From: a bacterium 1XD21-70
GTDB lineage: Bacteria; Bacillota; Clostridia; Lachnospirales; Lachnospiraceae
Reading direction: 5' to 3'
Assembly (NCBI GenBank): GCA_003669055.1
Contig: RAYB01000006.1
Span: 62,001 to 126,000 of the forward strand
Length of the DNA: 64,000 nucleotides
Shown in pieces: positions 21,241 through 62,842 of the stretch (position 1 is the stretch's first letter; the number at the start of each line of letters is the position of its first letter). The translations under genes and the position numbers were made by a program. The notes below the pieces were generated by a model that saw nothing but the letters and a program-made list of their open reading frames with translations, was not told the origin of the DNA and made no database searches.

Positions 21241-21262
21241 ATCCGGATTCCCGTCTATGTGA
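21241..21262. other. Left prophage-host junction (putative attL)
   Basis: Similarity to OppF stops abruptly here, inside the codons for the Walker A glycine-rich loop. Host sequence (GAATCCGGATGCGGC on the minus strand) gives way to phage sequence at about 21251-21253. The exact core cannot be defined without the right junction, which is outside the window. Confidence 0.6.
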
Positions 21263-27471: not shown

Positions 27472-28608
27472 TTACCTGGTTGAATTGTCATGCTTAATAA
27501 TGCGAAACGAAAATTCATCAATGACTTTCCGCAAAAGGTTTCTGGCCGTAAAGGTTCCAATCAGGCCGAAATAGCTTTGCATGGTATTATTTACTTTTTC
27601 AAACGTGATCCGCCCGATTTCAAACAGCCCGCGTATATATTTCATTCTGCGGAACATGCGCTTCCTTGTGCTTTTCCTCATGCGGATCGATTTTGGCGTA
27701 ATCTGTGCGCCTACGAACGTGACAGGCAGCCAGGCCGGGCGAATACATGTTTTCTTGTTTAATTCTAAATGCAACTTTTCATCCAGGAATCTTTCGATCT
27801 CTGCCTGAATTTGGTGTAATTCCTCTTTGTTTGGCCATAGGATGATAATATCATCCATATAGCGGATATAATACCGGATATGTAAATCGTGCTTGCAGAA
27901 TTGATCCAACTCATTCAGATAGATATTTGCAAACATTTGGCTTGTCAGGTTCCCGATCGGCATACCACGGTTATAAAGCCATTCTTCCCGATCGCATAAT
28001 TCAGGCTGGACGCCAGCCGGAAGCCCGAAGGCTGTATCCTCGCAATTTATCAGGTTATACAGATCCCGAAGGATCAGCGGATCCCTGATATGCTTAGATA
28101 GAATTTTCATCAGGATTTCATGATCGACGCGGTAAAAATACTTTGCAATATCCAGCTTTAGCACATACCACTTTTTAGCGCTCCTGGACGCCATGCGAAG
28201 CCAGTATTGCAGCTGCGCCCGCGCTCTTGTGGTTCCCTTGCCTACTCTGCACCCGTAACTATGCTCTATGTACTGTTTATCAAACAACGGATTCAATTTT
28301 TGATAATAGGCCCACTGTACAACGCGATCGCGGTATTGCAGCGCCATAATGATCCGTGGTTTCGGCTCATAGATTTTCTTTCGCCGGTATCTTCCGACGT
28401 GGTATGCAGATTCCAGCGGATTCCCTGGAATCCCGTCTTTCGGAAAATAGGTCAATTCATTGTGTAGTTTTATAAGTTCATCGCTTTTATGTGCTGAAAA
28501 TGCAAGGTTTTCATCGCGGTAATGTTTCCCTTGCGAAGCGTTTTTATCCGCTTGTAACAGATTTTCAAAATCTATTATTTCTTCATGTGTTACTTTAAAG
28601 GTTTTCAA
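27472..28608 (-). CDS. DGR reverse transcriptase
   Basis: A 378-residue reverse transcriptase. Core motifs: VLKLDIAKYFYRVDH (domain 3), GMPIGNLTSQMFANIYL (domain 4, with the (I/L)GxxxSQ form typical of diversity-generating retroelements instead of the QG of group II introns), and IRYMDDIIIL with the catalytic YMDD near residue 250. There is no maturase or endonuclease domain. A template repeat lies 270 bases upstream on the same strand, with an Avd gene and a variable repeat beyond it, so the family call rests on the whole cassette. The TTG start is preferred (AAAGGG 8 bases before, conserved region follows); a GTG at 28713 would add 35 residues across a hairpin. Confidence 0.93.
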   Translation of the reverse strand: MKTFKVTHEEIIDFENLLQADKNASQGKHYRDENLAFSAHKSDELIKLHNELTYFPKDGIPGNPLESAYHVGRYRRKKIYEPKPRIIMALQYRDRVVQWAYYQKLNPLFDKQYIEHSYGCRVGKGTTRARAQLQYWLRMASRSAKKWYVLKLDIAKYFYRVDHEILMKILSKHIRDPLILRDLYNLINCEDTAFGLPAGVQPELCDREEWLYNRGMPIGNLTSQMFANIYLNELDQFCKHDLHIRYYIRYMDDIIILWPNKEELHQIQAEIERFLDEKLHLELNKKTCIRPAWLPVTFVGAQITPKSIRMRKSTRKRMFRRMKYIRGLFEIGRITFEKVNNTMQSYFGLIGTFTARNLLRKVIDEFSFRIIKHDNSTR

Positions 28609-28633
28609 TAGCCTTTCCCTTTCTATAAAGATT

Positions 28634-28666
28634 CCCCCGCTTTGCTGGCTTGTGCTTTTGCGGGGG
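28634..28666 (-). other. GC hairpin between the DGR template and the RT
   Basis: CCCCCGC and GCGGGGG form a 7-base stem in the transcript 25 to 58 bases before the preferred RT start. It may structure the template RNA 3' part, attenuate RT translation, or both. Confidence 0.45.
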
Positions 28667-28875
28667 CTTGCGTTTATAGCTTTCGGCCATAGGCGCGGCG
28701 CTGTTCGTTGCACCCTTCAGGCCCTCCCATGCAGCCCATAAGCCAGCCGCATGATCGGTACTAACTGCATTAACAGCAACGTCAATTTATCCGGCCAGGC
28801 GGCCGGAACGGGAATAGATCCCTTTCCTTTTCTTGCACTGTGAAAATGTCCGTAAACATTCCCCTTCTGGCTAAA

Positions 28876-28997
28876 AAGGTAAGCGGAAAAGAAGCCGATG
28901 TTCGTGTTCACGTTAGAACGCGGGTTGTTCAAATTCAGCGCCGAAGGCCCGGAATTTGAAGTGTTGTTGTAACTCGCACCCACGATCGGCAAGCGTT
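28876..28997 (-). repeat. DGR template repeat (TR)
   Basis: This 122-base repeat matches 29541-29662 with 14 mismatches. On the coding strand 13 of them fall at TR adenines (13 of 28 TR adenines changed) and one at a guanine (28973). The TR is rich in AAC codons in the frame that corresponds to the target gene, which is the usual DGR design because AAC can mutate to many residues but not to stop. It lies in a non-coding stretch (28714-29021) between Avd and the RT and would be transcribed as part of the template RNA. An open frame across it is a by-product of its origin. Confidence 0.95.
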
Positions 28998-29021
28998 TAA
29001 TGACCTATCCCCACCGGAAAT

Positions 29022-29450
29022 TTATTTCGCGGTTGTTTTGCTGGTTTCTTTCTGCGAATTTATCCAGCCGCCGAGTAGCCTTCCAATTTCGCATAACCTT
29101 TCAGAAATCAGCTTGTAACGCTTTTCATCAATAAAACGCATGTCATAGGAAAGCTGATTGAAAAGCCGTAACAATTCCAGCTGCACATCTGCGTCCTGAA
29201 GCGTGGTTTTCTTGAAATACTTTTTCTGCGCCGTGATAATGTATATCAGGAATTGAAAAAGACATTGTTTATAGTCCGCCACGAAGCCAGGCTTTTCACT
29301 CCGCGGATATTTTACCCATGAAGTATAAAGATACTGCATAAGGTCTTTCGATTTCTGCAATATGATCAATCCGCTTTTCTGCTCTTTTCCTTCGTCTGTT
29401 TCCGGATTCCCGCGCGGCTGATTGTCATATCGCCTTTGATAACCGCCCAT
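29022..29450 (-). CDS. avd: DGR accessory variability determinant (Avd-like)
   Basis: A 142-residue, four-helix-bundle-like protein. Its helices contain ILQKSKDLMQYLYTSWVKYP, FVADYKQCLFQFLIYIITA, LQLELLRLFNQL-type and RLCEIGRLLGGWINSQ segments, the pattern of bAvd/S23-like proteins that bind the DGR reverse transcriptase and RNA template. The W-x-x-x-P after helix 1 is typical. It sits between the target gene and the TR, the same order as in Bordetella phage BPP-1 (target, avd, TR, RT). GGAAGGAAAA lies before the ATG. Confidence 0.82.
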   Translation of the reverse strand: MGGYQRRYDNQPRGNPETDEGKEQKSGLIILQKSKDLMQYLYTSWVKYPRSEKPGFVADYKQCLFQFLIYIITAQKKYFKKTTLQDADVQLELLRLFNQLSYDMRFIDEKRYKLISERLCEIGRLLGGWINSQKETSKTTAK

Positions 29451-29483
29451 TTCTTTATTTTCCTTCCATCATGCCAAAACATA

Positions 29484-29503
29484 GGGGCCGCTATCGCGGC
29501 CCC
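29484..29503 (-). promoter_or_regulatory. Post-VR hairpin/cruciform of the DGR
   Basis: GGGGCCGC-GATA-GCGGCCCC on the coding strand: a perfect 8-base GC stem with a 4-base loop. It begins 16 bases after the target stop codon and 37 bases after the end of the variable repeat. Hairpins with 7-10-base GC stems and GRNA-type loops downstream of the VR are needed for efficient homing in the BPP-1 DGR. There is no T-run after it, so it is not a simple terminator. Confidence 0.75.
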
Positions 29504-29519
29504 AAACAGATTACAGTTT

Positions 29520-30578
29520 TCAGATTACAGATTCCAACTCAAGGAAAGCGGAAAAGAAGCCGATGCCCGCGCCCACGTCAGAACGCGGGTGGGACAAATT
29601 CAGCGCCGAAGGCCCGGAATTCGAAGTGCTGTTGTAAGCCGCACCCACGATCGGCAAGCGTTCGCCCTCGTTGTTGATCCAGAATCCGCCGTTATGCGTT
29701 ACGCCGGTTTTCGGCGCAAGGTGCAATTCATAAAGGATTTCAGGGATCGTTACGCCGGTATCTGCTACCAGGTTGCCGAAGTTCGGCGTGTATGTACTGC
29801 CAACGGCGCCCGTTGCGGTTGCAATCTTGAAATCCTTTGTATATTTCAGCGTTCCGGCCGTTCCAGGATTTACCAGGGCGCCAGTAGGAAGGATCGCTTT
29901 CCAGTATGTGCTTTCAGGGGCCGCGCTTACCTGTCGCGCCGCCAGGTTGCCGACAAAGATCTGAATTTCTCCGTTGACTACACGCATACCGGAAGCCCAT
30001 TTCCAGACATTTCCAACCCAATCCGCGATCCCGTTCCTGGTTCCGTCGTGGAACCATGTTGCGGGGCCGGATCCGGCCGCTGTCCTGGTTGTTCTTCTGC
30101 CGCCGCTGCCGTCGCTTTCATCCGCGGTCTGTTCTCCGGCTTCGTATGTGTGCGTGTGGCTGTGTCCATACTGTGTATTGCCGCGCGGAACAAAACCGGA
30201 CTTGTAAATCAAGTGATCAATGACGGCTCTTTCCGGTATGCTCATTAAATGCCATCCGTTCCCCTTTGCGTTACATGCTGCCATTGAATCATCATAGTTA
30301 ATAACCGCTTTCGGATCCATCAGCGGCCAGGAATACGCGCGGCCATTGATCACGCAATTCAGGAATTTGCTGATAAAAAAGCGTTTATACTCCACATCAT
30401 CCACCATAAAGGCGGAATGTGTTTTCTGTGATCCGCCCTCAAAAAGCTGTGCATTTGTCCGCTGATTGATCGCAATCATGAAAGACGGAAGCCCTACATC
30501 ATCCTGGATCACGGTACACGCGCCGCCAGAAAGCCCTTCCGTTGCAAATTTCAAGCTGTCAAAATCATATGTTTTCAT
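29520..30578 (-). CDS. DGR-diversified tail-tip protein with C-type-lectin/FGE-like fold
   Basis: A 352-residue protein. The central and C-terminal parts match the formylglycine-generating-enzyme/C-type-lectin fold used by DGR targets: GNGWHLMSIPERAVIDHLI, GIADWVGNVWKWASG, and the terminal LPIVGAAYNSTSNSG to GIGFFSAFLE. The last 41 residues (about 306-346) are encoded by the variable repeat. It stands at the promoter-distal end of the tail genes, so it is probably the adhesin at the fibre tip that binds the host receptor. Its ATG is one base after the stop of the preceding gene. The final ELESVI differs from the TR and is not diversified. Confidence 0.87.
   Translation of the reverse strand: MKTYDFDSLKFATEGLSGGACTVIQDDVGLPSFMIAINQRTNAQLFEGGSQKTHSAFMVDDVEYKRFFISKFLNCVINGRAYSWPLMDPKAVINYDDSMAACNAKGNGWHLMSIPERAVIDHLIYKSGFVPRGNTQYGHSHTHTYEAGEQTADESDGSGGRRTTRTAAGSGPATWFHDGTRNGIADWVGNVWKWASGMRVVNGEIQIFVGNLAARQVSAAPESTYWKAILPTGALVNPGTAGTLKYTKDFKIATATGAVGSTYTPNFGNLVADTGVTIPEILYELHLAPKTGVTHNGGFWINNEGERLPIVGAAYNSTSNSGPSALNLSHPRSDVGAGIGFFSAFLELESVI
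29541..29662 (-). repeat. DGR variable repeat (VR)
   Basis: The 122 bases at the 3' end of the target gene correspond to the template repeat. Changed codons, template to variable: AGT to GCT, AAC to AGC, AAC AAC to TCC CAC, AAC to GAC, AAC to GGC, ACG to GCG, AAC to GGC, TAC to TTC, and one silent TCA to TCG. Unchanged GC-rich blocks between them code for the lectin-fold scaffold. The 3' end (GGCTTCTTTTCCGCTT) is identical in both and is the likely start point of mutagenic homing. Confidence 0.95.
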
Positions 30579-31983: not shown

Positions 31984-33525
31984 TTATTCGTCGGCGGCAT
32001 ACTTGCCCGCGTCAGTGTTATAATATAAGTCAACGCCTACGCTATCCGGCGCGGCGGAAACGCCGCTTTCCGCCCCAGCAAAACCGATCGACGGATCCGG
32101 AATGGAACCGCTTTCCGTGCTGCCGTCTGCGGGATAAACAACTTCATTCCCCGCGGAATCACTTTCAAGCGTGGCCTGTACTTCGGTAATCTGTGCGCCG
32201 ACTGAAATATCCGGCGCCGTGCCGCTTTGGTCATATGCGGCCGTGTGGCTCTCTGTGGCGGCCGTCAGGCCCATTTCTGCACCGCCGCCCTGGAATCCTG
32301 TTGAAATGTCCGGAATCGTGCCGCTTTGGTCATATGCGGCGCTTCCGCTGTCTGCTGCTGCCCCCAGGCCAACTTCTGCCGCGGCTCCCTGGAATCCGGT
32401 TGATATATCCGGAATTGTGCCGCTTTCCGCGCTGCTGTCTGTCTGGTACTGGAAAATATTTTCCCCTGAAGCGCCCTGTGCTTCAATCTGTCCCCCGGAA
32501 AAGGCAGCGCCGACCGAAATATCCGGCGCGGTTCCTGTTTCGTCGTATGACACGCGCCCGCTGTCGGTTCCCGTGTCCACGGTGATCCCGCCTTCGGTTC
32601 CCTGGAATCCGGTTGAAATCCCCGGATATGTGCCGCTTTCCGCGCTGGAATCCATAGGATAGACAATATTCGTTTCCCTGGAATCCGGTTCAATTTCAAG
32701 CTGCATGTCGGCCGGACGGAATCCGACTGAAATATCCGGTTCCGTTCCTGATTCCCGATCGCTGTCCGCCGAATACTGTAAATGGTTTTCTTCAGAAGCG
32801 CCCTGAACGTCAACGCGGTTTTCAGTAAGCGCGGCGCCGACCGAAATATCCGGCGCGGTTCCGGCTTCCGTGTATGCGGTATTTCCGGAATCTGCGGCCC
32901 CTTCAAGCGTGATTGTAACCTCTGCGGGCTGGAATCCCACTTCCGTATATGGATATGTGCCGCATATGTGATCGCCGCAAAAGGTATATAAAAAATTCTG
33001 GTATTCTGATAACTGATATATGGTCAATGTGATCCCGTTCTGGAATACCATATAATCAAAACGGGATCTTGCATTTTTCACCTGTTTCAGATAACGCAAA
33101 AAATCCTTTATGGAAGTTTGTGTTACCTCCGTTCCTACTGCGATCCGGAAGTGGAACGGCTCCCCGGCGTATGTATACCATTCTTCGACGGATGTATTTT
33201 CATTCCCGAAAACGGTATCAATCATTTCTTCCATTGCCTGTCTGGTTCCTAGTTTCATGTACCAGTATATAGAATTTCTGATCAGGCTCCGCTTTACATC
33301 AGGCGCCAGGGCCGTATTGTAGAATAAGACGCGGTTTTCTACTGCCAGGAAGTCAAGTTTCCCATCGTCAACCCGATCCAGATCTGCCCATATATAAACC
33401 CGTTTCATGCGGTCTATAAATTTCTTTTTCTGTCTGTCATAGGCGTAAGCCAGGGCGATCCGTTCAGGCGTCCGCATTTCTGCCGGAAACGCTTTCCATG
33501 TTTGAAAATCAACTAATTTAATCAT
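31984..33525 (-). CDS. Phage tail protein I with a C-terminal repeat array
   Basis: A 513-residue protein. Residues 1-200 match phage tail protein I (P2 gpI), which joins baseplate J to the fibres: LYALPDIS-type N-terminus is absent, but ALAYAYDRQKKKFIDRMK, LIRNSIYWYMKLGTRQAMEE and VEEWYTYAGEPFHFRI are typical. Residues 200-495 are nine tandem repeats of 33-39 residues with the motif GTxPDIS(V/T)G(F/A), alternating two flavours. A gpI of normal size is about 200 residues, so the array is an addition, probably an exposed beta-structured spacer or shaft. It overlaps gene J by 8 bases. Confidence 0.8.
   Translation of the reverse strand: MIKLVDFQTWKAFPAEMRTPERIALAYAYDRQKKKFIDRMKRVYIWADLDRVDDGKLDFLAVENRVLFYNTALAPDVKRSLIRNSIYWYMKLGTRQAMEEMIDTVFGNENTSVEEWYTYAGEPFHFRIAVGTEVTQTSIKDFLRYLKQVKNARSRFDYMVFQNGITLTIYQLSEYQNFLYTFCGDHICGTYPYTEVGFQPAEVTITLEGAADSGNTAYTEAGTAPDISVGAALTENRVDVQGASEENHLQYSADSDRESGTEPDISVGFRPADMQLEIEPDSRETNIVYPMDSSAESGTYPGISTGFQGTEGGITVDTGTDSGRVSYDETGTAPDISVGAAFSGGQIEAQGASGENIFQYQTDSSAESGTIPDISTGFQGAAAEVGLGAAADSGSAAYDQSGTIPDISTGFQGGGAEMGLTAATESHTAAYDQSGTAPDISVGAQITEVQATLESDSAGNEVVYPADGSTESGSIPDPSIGFAGAESGVSAAPDSVGVDLYYNTDAGKYAADE
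32040..32950 (-). repeat. Nine in-frame coding repeats in the gpI-like protein
   Basis: The DNA shows nine copies of a roughly 100-115-base unit with a conserved GGNACNNNNCCNGANATNTC core coding for GTxPDIS. Copies alternate between a short form (33 residues) and a long form (38 residues). Such arrays can expand or shrink by recombination. Confidence 0.75.
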
Positions 33526-61559: not shown

Positions 61560-62591
61560 CTATAAATATTTGCTCATAATATCCCGCTTTGACTGCGGTT
61601 TCTTTCCTCCGTCCTTTTTCTTTGCCGGTTCCATTTCATCCAAAAAGTTGACGCCGCCTTTCAACCCGGTTTCCCGTGTAGCTGCCAGATTCTTTTTAAT
61701 CAAATCTTTGTTTTCAGCGACTTTGTTATATACCACTTCAAGCCGCGTCTGCGGATATGTCAGGCCGGATATGCAGCATATTGTTTCCGTGTCGTTGAAT
61801 GTCTGGAAATTGTCGATCGGCGTTCCAAACGCCTTTTCTAAGTCAGACATTTTTACATCCCCAGCAAGGGAAGCTGTAATATATTTTACGGCCCTGTCAG
61901 GCTCCAACGGCGCCAGGGCGCTTTCTTTTACTGCCTGGATAACGTCGGCGCTTTCCTTGCCTTTGCTGCGGATAACGACGGAAACGCCATGCGCCTTTAA
62001 TGTTTCCATGATTTCCGCTTTGTCAATGTTGCCTTTTATGCTTTTATGTTTTTCCGGAATCTCTAAAAACGCGGTAAAGGAATCCACGAAGGCGGCGTTC
62101 AGTTCCAGCTTATCCCCGTTCCCATTGTCGATGATAAAACAGGAACCGGAACCGGAAATTTCCGTCAACTCCGAAAAACATTCGTAAGAATTGATATGCG
62201 ACTTCACGCTTTCATCAGGCGCCGGAATGATTGTGATCGCCCCTATGGTTTTCCCTTCGTCGATCAGTAAATCAATAAGCATAGGCCCGGCGCCGGAACC
62301 TGTGCCGCCACCGCTGGCGAAAATAACAAAAGTCATTTCGGATCTTGCTTTTGATTCGATTTCCGCCGCGATATTGTCAAAATCATCAATGACAAGCTGC
62401 TTCGCCTTTCTGCGGTCTTTGTTGCAGCCTTCGCCCTGTGGGATATGATACTTAAATTTTGCCTTTTCCAGCGTGTCAAGATCCTCTTGTGATGTATTCA
62501 CATAGATTACAGAAAATCCTTTTTGTTCAAATAACCGGCCAATATTTCCGGCCGCCTGGCCTACTGCCACGAACGAAATTTTCTTTTTCAT
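61560..62591 (-). CDS. TubZ-like phage/plasmid tubulin GTPase
   Basis: A 343-residue FtsZ/tubulin-fold GTPase with the tubulin signature IFASGGGTGSGAGPMLIDL near residue 100, plus VGQAAGNIGRLFEQKGFSVI at the N-terminus. The C-terminal 40 residues are basic (AKKKDGGKKPQSKRDIMSKY), as in TubZ, whose tail binds TubR. It forms moving filaments that pull DNA carrying TubR-bound centromeres. The ATG overlaps the stop of the small winged-helix gene (ATGA), so they form one operon. It is more like plasmid/phage TubZ than host FtsZ. Confidence 0.82.
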   Translation of the reverse strand: MKKKISFVAVGQAAGNIGRLFEQKGFSVIYVNTSQEDLDTLEKAKFKYHIPQGEGCNKDRRKAKQLVIDDFDNIAAEIESKARSEMTFVIFASGGGTGSGAGPMLIDLLIDEGKTIGAITIIPAPDESVKSHINSYECFSELTEISGSGSCFIIDNGNGDKLELNAAFVDSFTAFLEIPEKHKSIKGNIDKAEIMETLKAHGVSVVIRSKGKESADVIQAVKESALAPLEPDRAVKYITASLAGDVKMSDLEKAFGTPIDNFQTFNDTETICCISGLTYPQTRLEVVYNKVAENKDLIKKNLAATRETGLKGGVNFLDEMEPAKKKDGGKKPQSKRDIMSKYL

Positions 62592-62842
62592 TTTTTGCCC
62601 CTTTCTTTTTCCAGACATTCACACCCTTCAGGCGTGATAAAATATGTGTCGGCGCGGCCTTCTTTCAGCCCGCGGCCAATATATCCGGATTTTTCAAAAT
62701 CCTTTATTTTCTTGAATATCGTATTTTCTTTCAATCCGAAATCCTCCGAAGCGGCGATCTCTTTTACTGTCATAGACGATAATCTATTTGTGGCTTCGCC
62801 CGTCCGTAAGATTGAAAGAATAATAAAGCCTAGCCTGTTCAA
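62588..62842 (-). CDS. TubR-like winged-helix partition adaptor
   Basis: An 84-residue winged helix-turn-helix protein: MTVKEIAASEDFGLKENTIF then KKIKDFEKSGYIGRG and YFITPEGCECLEKER. A TTG start is preceded by AAGGA at 9 bases. It lies directly before the TubZ gene and directly after the 10-bp iterons, the order of known tubC-tubR-tubZ cassettes. It should bind the iterons and couple DNA to TubZ filaments. Confidence 0.75.
   Translation of the reverse strand: MNRLGFIILSILRTGEATNRLSSMTVKEIAASEDFGLKENTIFKKIKDFEKSGYIGRGLKEGRADTYFITPEGCECLEKERGKK

What the first reader, a model, noticed from the sequence alone, without database searches (positions are those of the whole stretch)
27472..30578. 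Complete diversity-generating retroelement inside a myovirus prophage
All parts are visible in one strand and in the order known from Bordetella phage BPP-1: target gene with VR, Avd, TR, reverse transcriptase. The RT has YMDD and the IGNLTSQ motif. The DGR is directly downstream of the baseplate and fibre genes and upstream of lysis genes, so it diversifies the tail tip. Seen: the motifs, the repeats and the order. Inferred: that it is active and changes host range.
Basis: partly seen in the sequence, partly recalled or inferred. Interest (0 to 1): 0.93.

Follow-up and report, generated by a model that had tools for sequence, protein, structure and literature searches.

The report
Two-target mutation cassette in gut prophage
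A prophage in a gut bacterium carries a complete cassette that rewrites part of its probable tail fibre, and the same cassette also appears to rewrite a related protein of unknown job encoded among the early genes at the far side of the prophage.

Summary
[quoted passage not shown] TR and VR (122 nt) differ at 13 of 28 TR adenines and 1 of 94 other bases. Relatives with near-identical flanks carry VR alleles that differ almost only at TR adenines, so such DGRs have been active. Alone, this is an ordinary member of a known kind.

This target (T2) is a paralogue of the first (39% identity) but lies among early genes, not tail genes. A distal T2 was found in 20 of 38 relatives searched; in those 20 its VR matches the genome's own TR and differs mainly at adenines. 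T1 and T2 fall on opposite sides of one fully supported branch, Lagaffevirus and Dulem virus 37 included. Distal second VRs are already published; the early-operon T2 lineage is what I add. T2's function is untested.

The parts
29520..30578 (-). Target 1 (T1), 352 aa, probable tail fibre with C-type-lectin (FGE-type) region. Its counterpart T2 lies outside the window: L111 2041-3000 (-), equal to window 64041-65000, with VR2 core at 64067-64171 and a hairpin at 64010-64025
   Evidence: ORF; PHROG 2889 and weak 5302; profile match to 5VF4, E 1.9e-116; T2:
29541..29662 (-). VR1
   Evidence: 122-nt repeat of TR, 13 of 28 TR adenines and 1 of 94 other bases differ
29484..29503 (-). Hairpin after VR1, 8-bp stem, GATA loop
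   Evidence: feature described in PMC3240598
29022..29450 (-). Avd, 142 aa
   Evidence: NF033474 89.5 bits, Pfam bAvd, PHROG 3206
28876..28997 (-). TR
28609..28875 (-). Spacer from TR to RT, covarying RNA structure
   Evidence: 13 of 38 pairs changed on both sides, shuffle mean 6.0
27472..28608 (-). Reverse transcriptase, 378 aa from TTG
   Evidence: RVT_1, PHROG 1423, IGNLTSQ 218 and YMDD 250
21244..21252 (-). Likely left att core (GGGAATCCG) in split oppF; the right copy is at about 72712-72720 outside the window
   Evidence: no empty site was compared

Best explanation
This is a diversity-generating retroelement with two targets. The RT with Avd copies TR RNA into cDNA with errors at adenines, and the cDNA replaces VR1 in T1, a probable tail fibre encoded after the baseplate genes. 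It also replaces VR2 in T2, a paralogue encoded in the early (lysogeny/replication) region, about 34 kb away in the prophage and about 14 kb downstream of the DGR in the circular phage genome. Shown: the anatomy, the adenine-biased pattern at both VRs, hypervariable alleles of both VRs among relatives, hairpins after the VRs, and an old T1/T2 split. Inferred: T1 binds the host surface; T2 is made early, is not an ordinary tail component, and acts in the infected or lysogenic cell as a variable binding protein, most likely in conflict with host defences or competing phages. I put about 0.95 on the DGR, 0.9 on T2 being a true second target and 0.4 on the role proposed for T2; the confidence below is for the two-target DGR.
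For: DGR parts. Over 68 distinct TR/VR pairs with symmetric scoring, 910 of 1743 TR adenines differ against 33 of 6019 other bases. Allele pairs with identical or nearly identical flanks: L051/L052 17 of 23 A, 0 of 73 other; L061/L062 9 of 25, 0 of 92; L023/L073 16 of 24, 0 of 89; L058/L059, the nearest to the window apart from the identical L002, 12 of 26, 0 of 91. Three TR-like places in the assembly: TR, VR1, VR2. In 20 of 20 distal copies compared, VR2 matches the genome's own TR: 230 of 491 A against 15 of 1748 other bases. VR2 alleles vary too: L124/L125 11 of 22 A, 0 of 82 other, upstream 100% identical. T1 (24 rows) and T2 (25 rows) are separated by one branch, 100/100. Early context. 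Purifying selection on T2 outside the VR, dN/dS 0.08-0.29 in 10 pairs.
Against: No transcription, virion or phenotype data. T2 is not universal: of 38 records, 16 show only a T1-like place and 2 a second place on another contig (many are fragments). Some relatives with diverged flanks share one VR1: L020/L022 0 of 24 adenine differences although Avd is 97.4% and RT 95.9% identical. T2 of L064 is frameshifted at the VR; L121 (L004) and L138 (L079) have 5 non-adenine differences each under symmetric scoring. The RT frame of L062 meets a stop after 292 residues. One VR1 difference in the window (G>C) is not at an adenine. 3 of 20 VR2 and 13 of 68 VRs lack a hairpin by my criteria. The promoter scan found no more sites than chance (13 against a mean of 15.0). 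No structure model could be obtained.
Confidence: 0.88

Rival explanations
1. T2 is a second virion protein (alternative or additional receptor binder), so the DGR simply diversifies two fibres.
For: T2 is a paralogue of T1 with the same TaqVP-like region. PMC11792537 (discussion read) finds it tempting that two Mtd-like targets of Lagaffe_CP double the efficiency of host-range broadening.
Against: T2 lies with integrase, repressor, methyltransferase and replication genes, not tail genes; it forms its own lineage and in the window's clade lacks the first ~20 residues of T1.
Confidence: 0.25
2. T2 is a functionless duplicate that is rewritten only because it keeps VR homology and a hairpin.
For: Absent from part of the records; T2 of L064 is frameshifted; T2 has a higher dN than T1 in 7 of 10 pairs.
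Against: dN/dS 0.08-0.29 outside the VR, one old lineage, hairpin kept after VR2 in 17 of 20.
Confidence: 0.12
3. The DGR of this particular prophage is intact in sequence but silent or defective, and its VRs are old.
For: The only identical record, L002, shows the same VRs and is probably the same strain; no read data here.
Against: RT, Avd, TR, both hairpins and both VRs look intact; nearest relatives differ at both VRs.
Confidence: 0.15
4. The repeat is an ordinary duplication and the RT a group II intron or retron remnant.
For: NCBIfam's best RT hit is the group II intron RT model, far below its cut-off (119.9 bits, cut-off 300).
Against: Adenine bias, Avd over cut-off, IGNLTSQ motif.
Confidence: 0.01

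Closest known systems
Bordetella phage BPP-1 DGR (mtd-avd-TR-brt)
   Same: Order of parts (BPP-1 order recalled), Avd, RT, adenine mutagenesis, hairpin with GRNA loop after VR as described in PMC3240598 (passages read)
   Different: BPP-1 has one target (recalled); here a second, distal, paralogous target; T1 matches TaqVP, and Mtd was not among the profile hits listed
Faecalibacterium phage Lagaffe (Lagaffevirus), MG711461
   Same: Contractile-tailed prophage; RT 45% identical; T1-Avd-TR-RT after the baseplate genes and a second VR in an early-region FGE-type gene. A second VR is published in PMC11792537 (passages and discussion read)
   Different: IS30-type integrase (PMC5883640, passages); VR2 internal in a longer T2; published suggestion is doubled host-range efficiency
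Inducible gut prophages with a second distal VR (PMC12629997; passages read)
   Different: Sequences not compared here; orthology to T2 untested
Quimbyviridae DGRs (PMC8008677; passages read)
   Same: One target in the structural module, one in a defence-related island
   Different: Bacteroidetes phages; no Quimby record by name in the organism tally of the 47 phage records that match T2; whether the collection holds one was not checked
Clostridium clostridioforme LM41 prophage phi3 (PMC11318856; passages read)
   Same: Its table lists two PHROG 2889 genes (ORF 13, ORF 71), Avd (ORF 73) and RT (ORF 76), like T2 and T1-Avd-RT here
   Different: There both PHROG 2889 genes are given as host metabolism; in the passages I saw they are not called DGR targets; sequence not examined
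Thermus aquaticus TaqVP (PDB 5VF4; PMC6328139, passages read)
   Same: Crystal structure of a prophage DGR variable protein with FGE-type C-type-lectin fold; matches the T1 profile from residue 5 and the T2 profile from residue 27 of the chain
   Different: Thermophile prophage; a second target there was not looked for

Membership tests
Diversity-generating retroelement | RT with DGR-type motif and catalytic YxDD | tested here: met
   IGNLTSQ at residue 218, YMDD at 250; that this motif marks DGR RTs is recalled
Diversity-generating retroelement | TR/VR pair differing almost only at TR adenines | tested here: met
   13 of 28 A against 1 of 94 other bases; 68 distinct pairs pooled 910 of 1743 against 33 of 6019
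Diversity-generating retroelement | Avd accessory protein | tested here: met
   NF033474 89.5 bits, cut-off 80
Diversity-generating retroelement | VR at the 3' end of a C-type-lectin-fold target | tested here: met
   Profile match to TaqVP, E 1.9e-116, by sequence only; VR ends 21 nt before the ORF end
Diversity-generating retroelement | Hairpin with GRNA loop after VR (phage DGRs, PMC3240598) | tested here: met
   8-bp stem, GATA loop at 29484-29503
Diversity-generating retroelement | RT-dependent retrohoming in vivo | not testable with these tools
   Only natural alleles
Second target of the same DGR (T2) | VR2 matches this genome's TR except at adenines | tested here: met
   18 of 24 A, 0 of 81 other bases over the core
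Second target of the same DGR (T2) | VR2 alleles vary at adenines among relatives with constant flanks | tested here: met
   L124/L125 11 of 22 A, 0 of 82; L131/L134 17 of 24, 0 of 88; L119/L120 9 of 23, 0 of 82
Early, non-virion protein (T2) | Gene position among early genes | tested here: met
Early, non-virion protein (T2) | Early transcription and absence from the virion | not testable with these tools
   none
Myovirus (contractile tail) | Tail sheath gene | tested here: met
   PHROG 23, E 5e-59
Prophage | Integrase and integration site | tested here: met
   Serine integrase PHROG 95; oppF split with a shared 9-nt core; empty site not compared
Tail-tip receptor-binding protein (T1) | Assigned to a tail-fibre family or shown in virions | tested here: inconclusive
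   Weak PHROG 5302 tail hit, E 2e-6, and gene position

The most novel reading that the evidence does not exclude
T2 is an old family of early-expressed, non-virion phage proteins kept hypervariable in trans by the tail-fibre DGR. The phage would run one mutation machine for two arms of its conflict with bacteria: outside the cell (T1, receptor binding) and inside it (T2, binding of variable host defence or competitor proteins).
Probability: 0.35. Interest if true: 0.85.

Novelty: new member of a known kind. Interest (0 to 1): 0.5.

Why it matters
A survey of more than 30,000 DGRs says that its short contigs would not show remote targets (PMC8144416, abstract and passage read). Here relatives show that an early-region second target is not a one-off: it forms its own lineage, keeps its surroundings in the window's clade, and has about as many TR adenines changed as the tail target (227 of 484 against 247 of 484 in 20 genomes). 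That gives a defined gene family on which to test why some phages hypermutate a second protein. It also suggests that some FGE-type genes of prophages filed under host metabolism may be DGR targets.

Tried and rejected
A further VR inside the window: none found on either strand with my criterion. A TR that fits the odd VR2 of L004 better: none among the 72 TRs held, best 5 non-adenine differences. Rfam families at gathering score and tRNAs in the window: none. Structure models of T1 and T2: never obtained, the machine was busy, so no fold search was made. A gene partner of T2 shared by all phages: none among 30 loci, only the early character of the neighbourhood.

Counting. The first pooled counts (958 of 1841 A, 11 of 6304 other) came from a scoring that penalised non-adenine mismatches; I replaced them by symmetric scoring. 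Rows dropped: L046 was left out of the TR/VR search; 17 of 89 loci gave no pair, many of them cut near the RT; 4 of 72 pairs were duplicates. The tree used 24 of the T1 rows held (those with a T2 partner) and 25 T2 rows. Of the 80 loci listed (156 relatives were found, the best 80 kept), 60 were classified: 34 T2, 21 T1, 5 unclear; 4 of the 34 (L168, L169, L178, L190) were left out. RT motifs were sought in 80 of 89 loci; 9 gave frames under 330 aa, L027 and others at a contig end. One row of alignment A1 (L130) was read from slightly wrong coordinates; A1 served only as query.
Full report
WHAT WAS CHECKED. The finding places a complete DGR at 27472-30578. One search lists the ORFs, one search finds one long direct repeat (122 nt, 89%), and one search aligns its copies in the sense of the genes. 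TR is 28997-28876, VR 29662-29541, both on the minus strand. Of 14 differences 13 fall on the 28 TR adenines (9 A>G, 2 A>T, 2 A>C) and one (G>C) on the other 94 bases. Seven of the ten changed codons are AAC or TAC in TR. Protein families: Avd over its NCBIfam cut-off, Pfam bAvd and RVT_1, PHROGs Avd 3206, RT 1423 and target 2889.

ONE CORRECTION. In one search the A>T at TR index 117 is present in all 16 VR rows that were in register (L010, L011 and L065 were not), while the TRs keep A. It is better read as a fixed difference between the 3' ends of the repeats than as mutagenesis, which leaves 12 adenine changes.

THE PROPHAGE. Sheath, tape measure, baseplate J, gpI-like, portal, protease, major head protein and terminase genes and holin-like plus amidase/lysozyme genes make a myovirus-type prophage. 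It sits in a 147-kb contig of a 4.3-Mb assembly. It splits an oppF gene: the frame ends after GVVGES on one side and resumes at ESGCGKST on the other, with a shared 9-nt core. I did not compare an empty site. On this reading the prophage runs from about 21,250 to about 72,720 in window coordinates, so its last 8.7 kb lie outside the window. A serine integrase and a repressor-like gene lie at that end.

IS IT ACTIVE? RT relatives: 56 loci in viral contigs and 33 in genome contigs. TR/VR pairs were found in 72 of 89 loci examined, the window included; 68 are distinct. With symmetric scoring 910 of 1743 TR adenines and 33 of 6019 other bases differ. The adenine changes are A>G 494, A>T 260, A>C 164 (other scoring). 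The sharper test compares VRs between relatives with almost the same flanks: L051/L052 (Avd, RT and upstream 100% identical) 17 of 23 adenine sites and 0 of 73 others; L023/L073 (likewise 100%) 16 of 24 and 0 of 89; L061/L062 9 of 25 and 0 of 92; L058/L059, the window's nearest relatives apart from L002, 12 of 26 and 0 of 91. Against: L020/L022 share the same VR (0 of 24) although Avd is 97.4% and RT 95.9% identical, and L017/L018/L019, L055/L057 and L002/window are identical throughout and tell nothing.

OTHER DGR FEATURES. A hairpin of 8 bp with a GATA loop follows VR1. By the same criteria hairpins follow 55 of 68 VRs, 50 of them with GRNA loops, against 158 of 1360 random stretches with any hairpin. 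PMC3240598 (passages read) describes this element, with 7-10-bp GC-rich stems and GRNA loops, as needed for efficient retrohoming in BPP-1. The spacer between TR and RT folds consistently in 15 relatives: 13 of 38 pairs change on both sides (shuffle mean 6.0, 0 of 500 as high) against 1 to 3 in slid controls. The structure was derived from these sequences, which favours it over the slid versions.

A SECOND TARGET. Reading past the window end showed an ORF of 319 aa (L111 2041-3000, minus; window 65000-64041) that ends like T1. TR matches its 3' part with 18 of 24 adenines changed and 0 of 81 other bases over the core (Fisher p = 2e-15); over the whole 122 nt of TR there are 11 non-adenine differences, all at the ends. 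The TR core pattern with up to three mismatches has exactly three places in the assembly: TR, VR1, VR2. The protein is 39% identical to T1 over 301 aa, belongs to the same PHROG, and the T2 profile matches TaqVP (5VF4) with E 1.1e-64. A 6-bp GATA hairpin follows VR2.

IS IT A ONE-OFF? No. Of 38 genomes or records searched all have a match to the query, but T1 counts as one; 20 have a distal copy on the same contig, 2 a second place on another contig, 16 only one. In 20 of 20 distal copies compared, one per record, the VR matches the genome's own TR: non-adenine differences 0 in 17, 1 in two, 5 of 82 in L121 (scoring that penalises them); with symmetric scoring 230 of 491 adenines against 15 of 1748 others. 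VR2 alleles vary with constant flanks: L124/L125 11 of 22 and 0 of 82 with 100% identical upstream sequence, L131/L134 17 of 24 and 0 of 88 (100%), L119/L120 9 of 23 and 0 of 82 (99.9%). Hairpins follow VR2 in 17 of 20 (16 GRNA), against 15 of 400 controls (1 GRNA). Lagaffe and Dulem virus 37 have the same plan: TR-matching VRs in a post-baseplate gene and in a distant early-region gene (Dulem's VR2 has 4 non-adenine differences in 85).

AGE AND PLACE OF T2. A tree of the part before the VR (49 rows, 46 different) puts 24 T1 and 25 T2 on opposite sides of one branch, 100/100, in all 200 bootstrap trees, 0 of 500 shuffles as low. The program warns of long branches, Lagaffe's T2 among them. In 10 of 16 T2 loci examined, those of the window's clade, T2 is followed by TubZ, DnaD-like and DnaC-like genes. 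In 30 further T2 loci from viral contigs the recurring neighbours are serine-integrase-like (13 of 30), repressor-like (12), DnaD-like or replication-initiation (12), Rep-like (10) and DnaC-like genes (9) (single-linkage BLAST groups, the integrase and repressor labels by likeness to the window prophage). In the window prophage two DNA methyltransferases lie upstream in the same direction. Promoter-like sites on both strands beside the repressor match 11 of 12 consensus bases, but the scan as a whole found no excess. In the window's clade T2 lacks the first ~20 residues of T1; elsewhere T2 N termini vary. Outside the VR, dN/dS of T2 is 0.08-0.29 in 10 pairs.

HOW IT PROBABLY WORKS. The DGR mechanism is established knowledge from BPP-1 (recalled in outline; hairpin and IMH read in PMC3240598). 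What is added is that one TR serves two distant sites. T1 by position is the host-binding fibre. For T2 I favour an early, intracellular, variable binding protein in the conflict with host defences or rival phages. The grounds are its place beside methyltransferase and replication genes, its separate lineage and its different N terminus. This is an inference at about 0.4. A virion role (0.25) and a functionless duplicate (0.12) are not excluded.

WHAT IS KNOWN. Second VRs are in print: two targets in one cassette in phages nd4 and nd12 (PMC10743442, passages), Lagaffe_CP, Lelie and CP11, with mention of Roseburia phage Shimadzu (PMC11792537, passages and discussion), Quimbyviridae with one structural and one defence-island target (PMC8008677, passages), and four inducible gut prophage species with a second VR distal from the RT near DNA methyltransferase genes (PMC12629997, passages). 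PMC11318856 lists in LM41 phi3 two PHROG 2889 genes with Avd and RT and files the two as host metabolism (passages). My searches listed no paper that I recognised as treating the early-region target as an orthologous family with its own lineage; but the library holds only openly licensed papers, the listings were capped, and I read passages, not whole texts. Hence 'new member of a known kind', with the T2 lineage as the interesting part.

Noticed in passing
window 61560-62618 (-): Phage tubulin/TubZ-like protein (Pfam Tubulin and TubZ_C_3, PHROG PhuZ) in the replication region of a temperate myovirus; present after T2 in 10 of 16 T2 loci.
   Followed up: partly
window 21244-21252 and L111 10712-10720: The prophage interrupts oppF of an oligopeptide transporter operon at its Walker A codons, with a 9-nt shared core.
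   Followed up: partly
L020 against L021, L071, L072: Avd 100%, RT 99-100% and TR 99-100% identical, but the T1 body upstream of VR only 75-77%: targets seem to be swapped under a constant cassette.
   Followed up: no
L004 against the window: Avd 99.6% and TR 99.2% identical but RT only 82%: a mosaic DGR. Its VR2 fits none of the TRs held with fewer than 5 non-adenine differences, as if written from a TR since replaced.
   Followed up: partly
G165 (L059, L060 and G165:C208): One isolate carries three related DGR prophages, each with a T1-like and a distal T2-like gene on the same contig.
   Followed up: partly
L054, L088, L089: More distant RT relatives with two VRs close to the RT, in L089 one on either side of it.
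   Followed up: no
window 31984-33525 (-): The gpI-like baseplate protein has a long C-terminal part made of repeated PDISxG(F/A)-like units, seen by eye.
   Followed up: no
L064 (L122) and L062: T2 of L064 is frameshifted at the start of VR2; the RT frame of L062 ends after 292 residues.
   Followed up: no
window 28609-28875 (-): The TR-to-RT spacer is a covarying structured RNA with no Rfam match at gathering score.
   Followed up: partly
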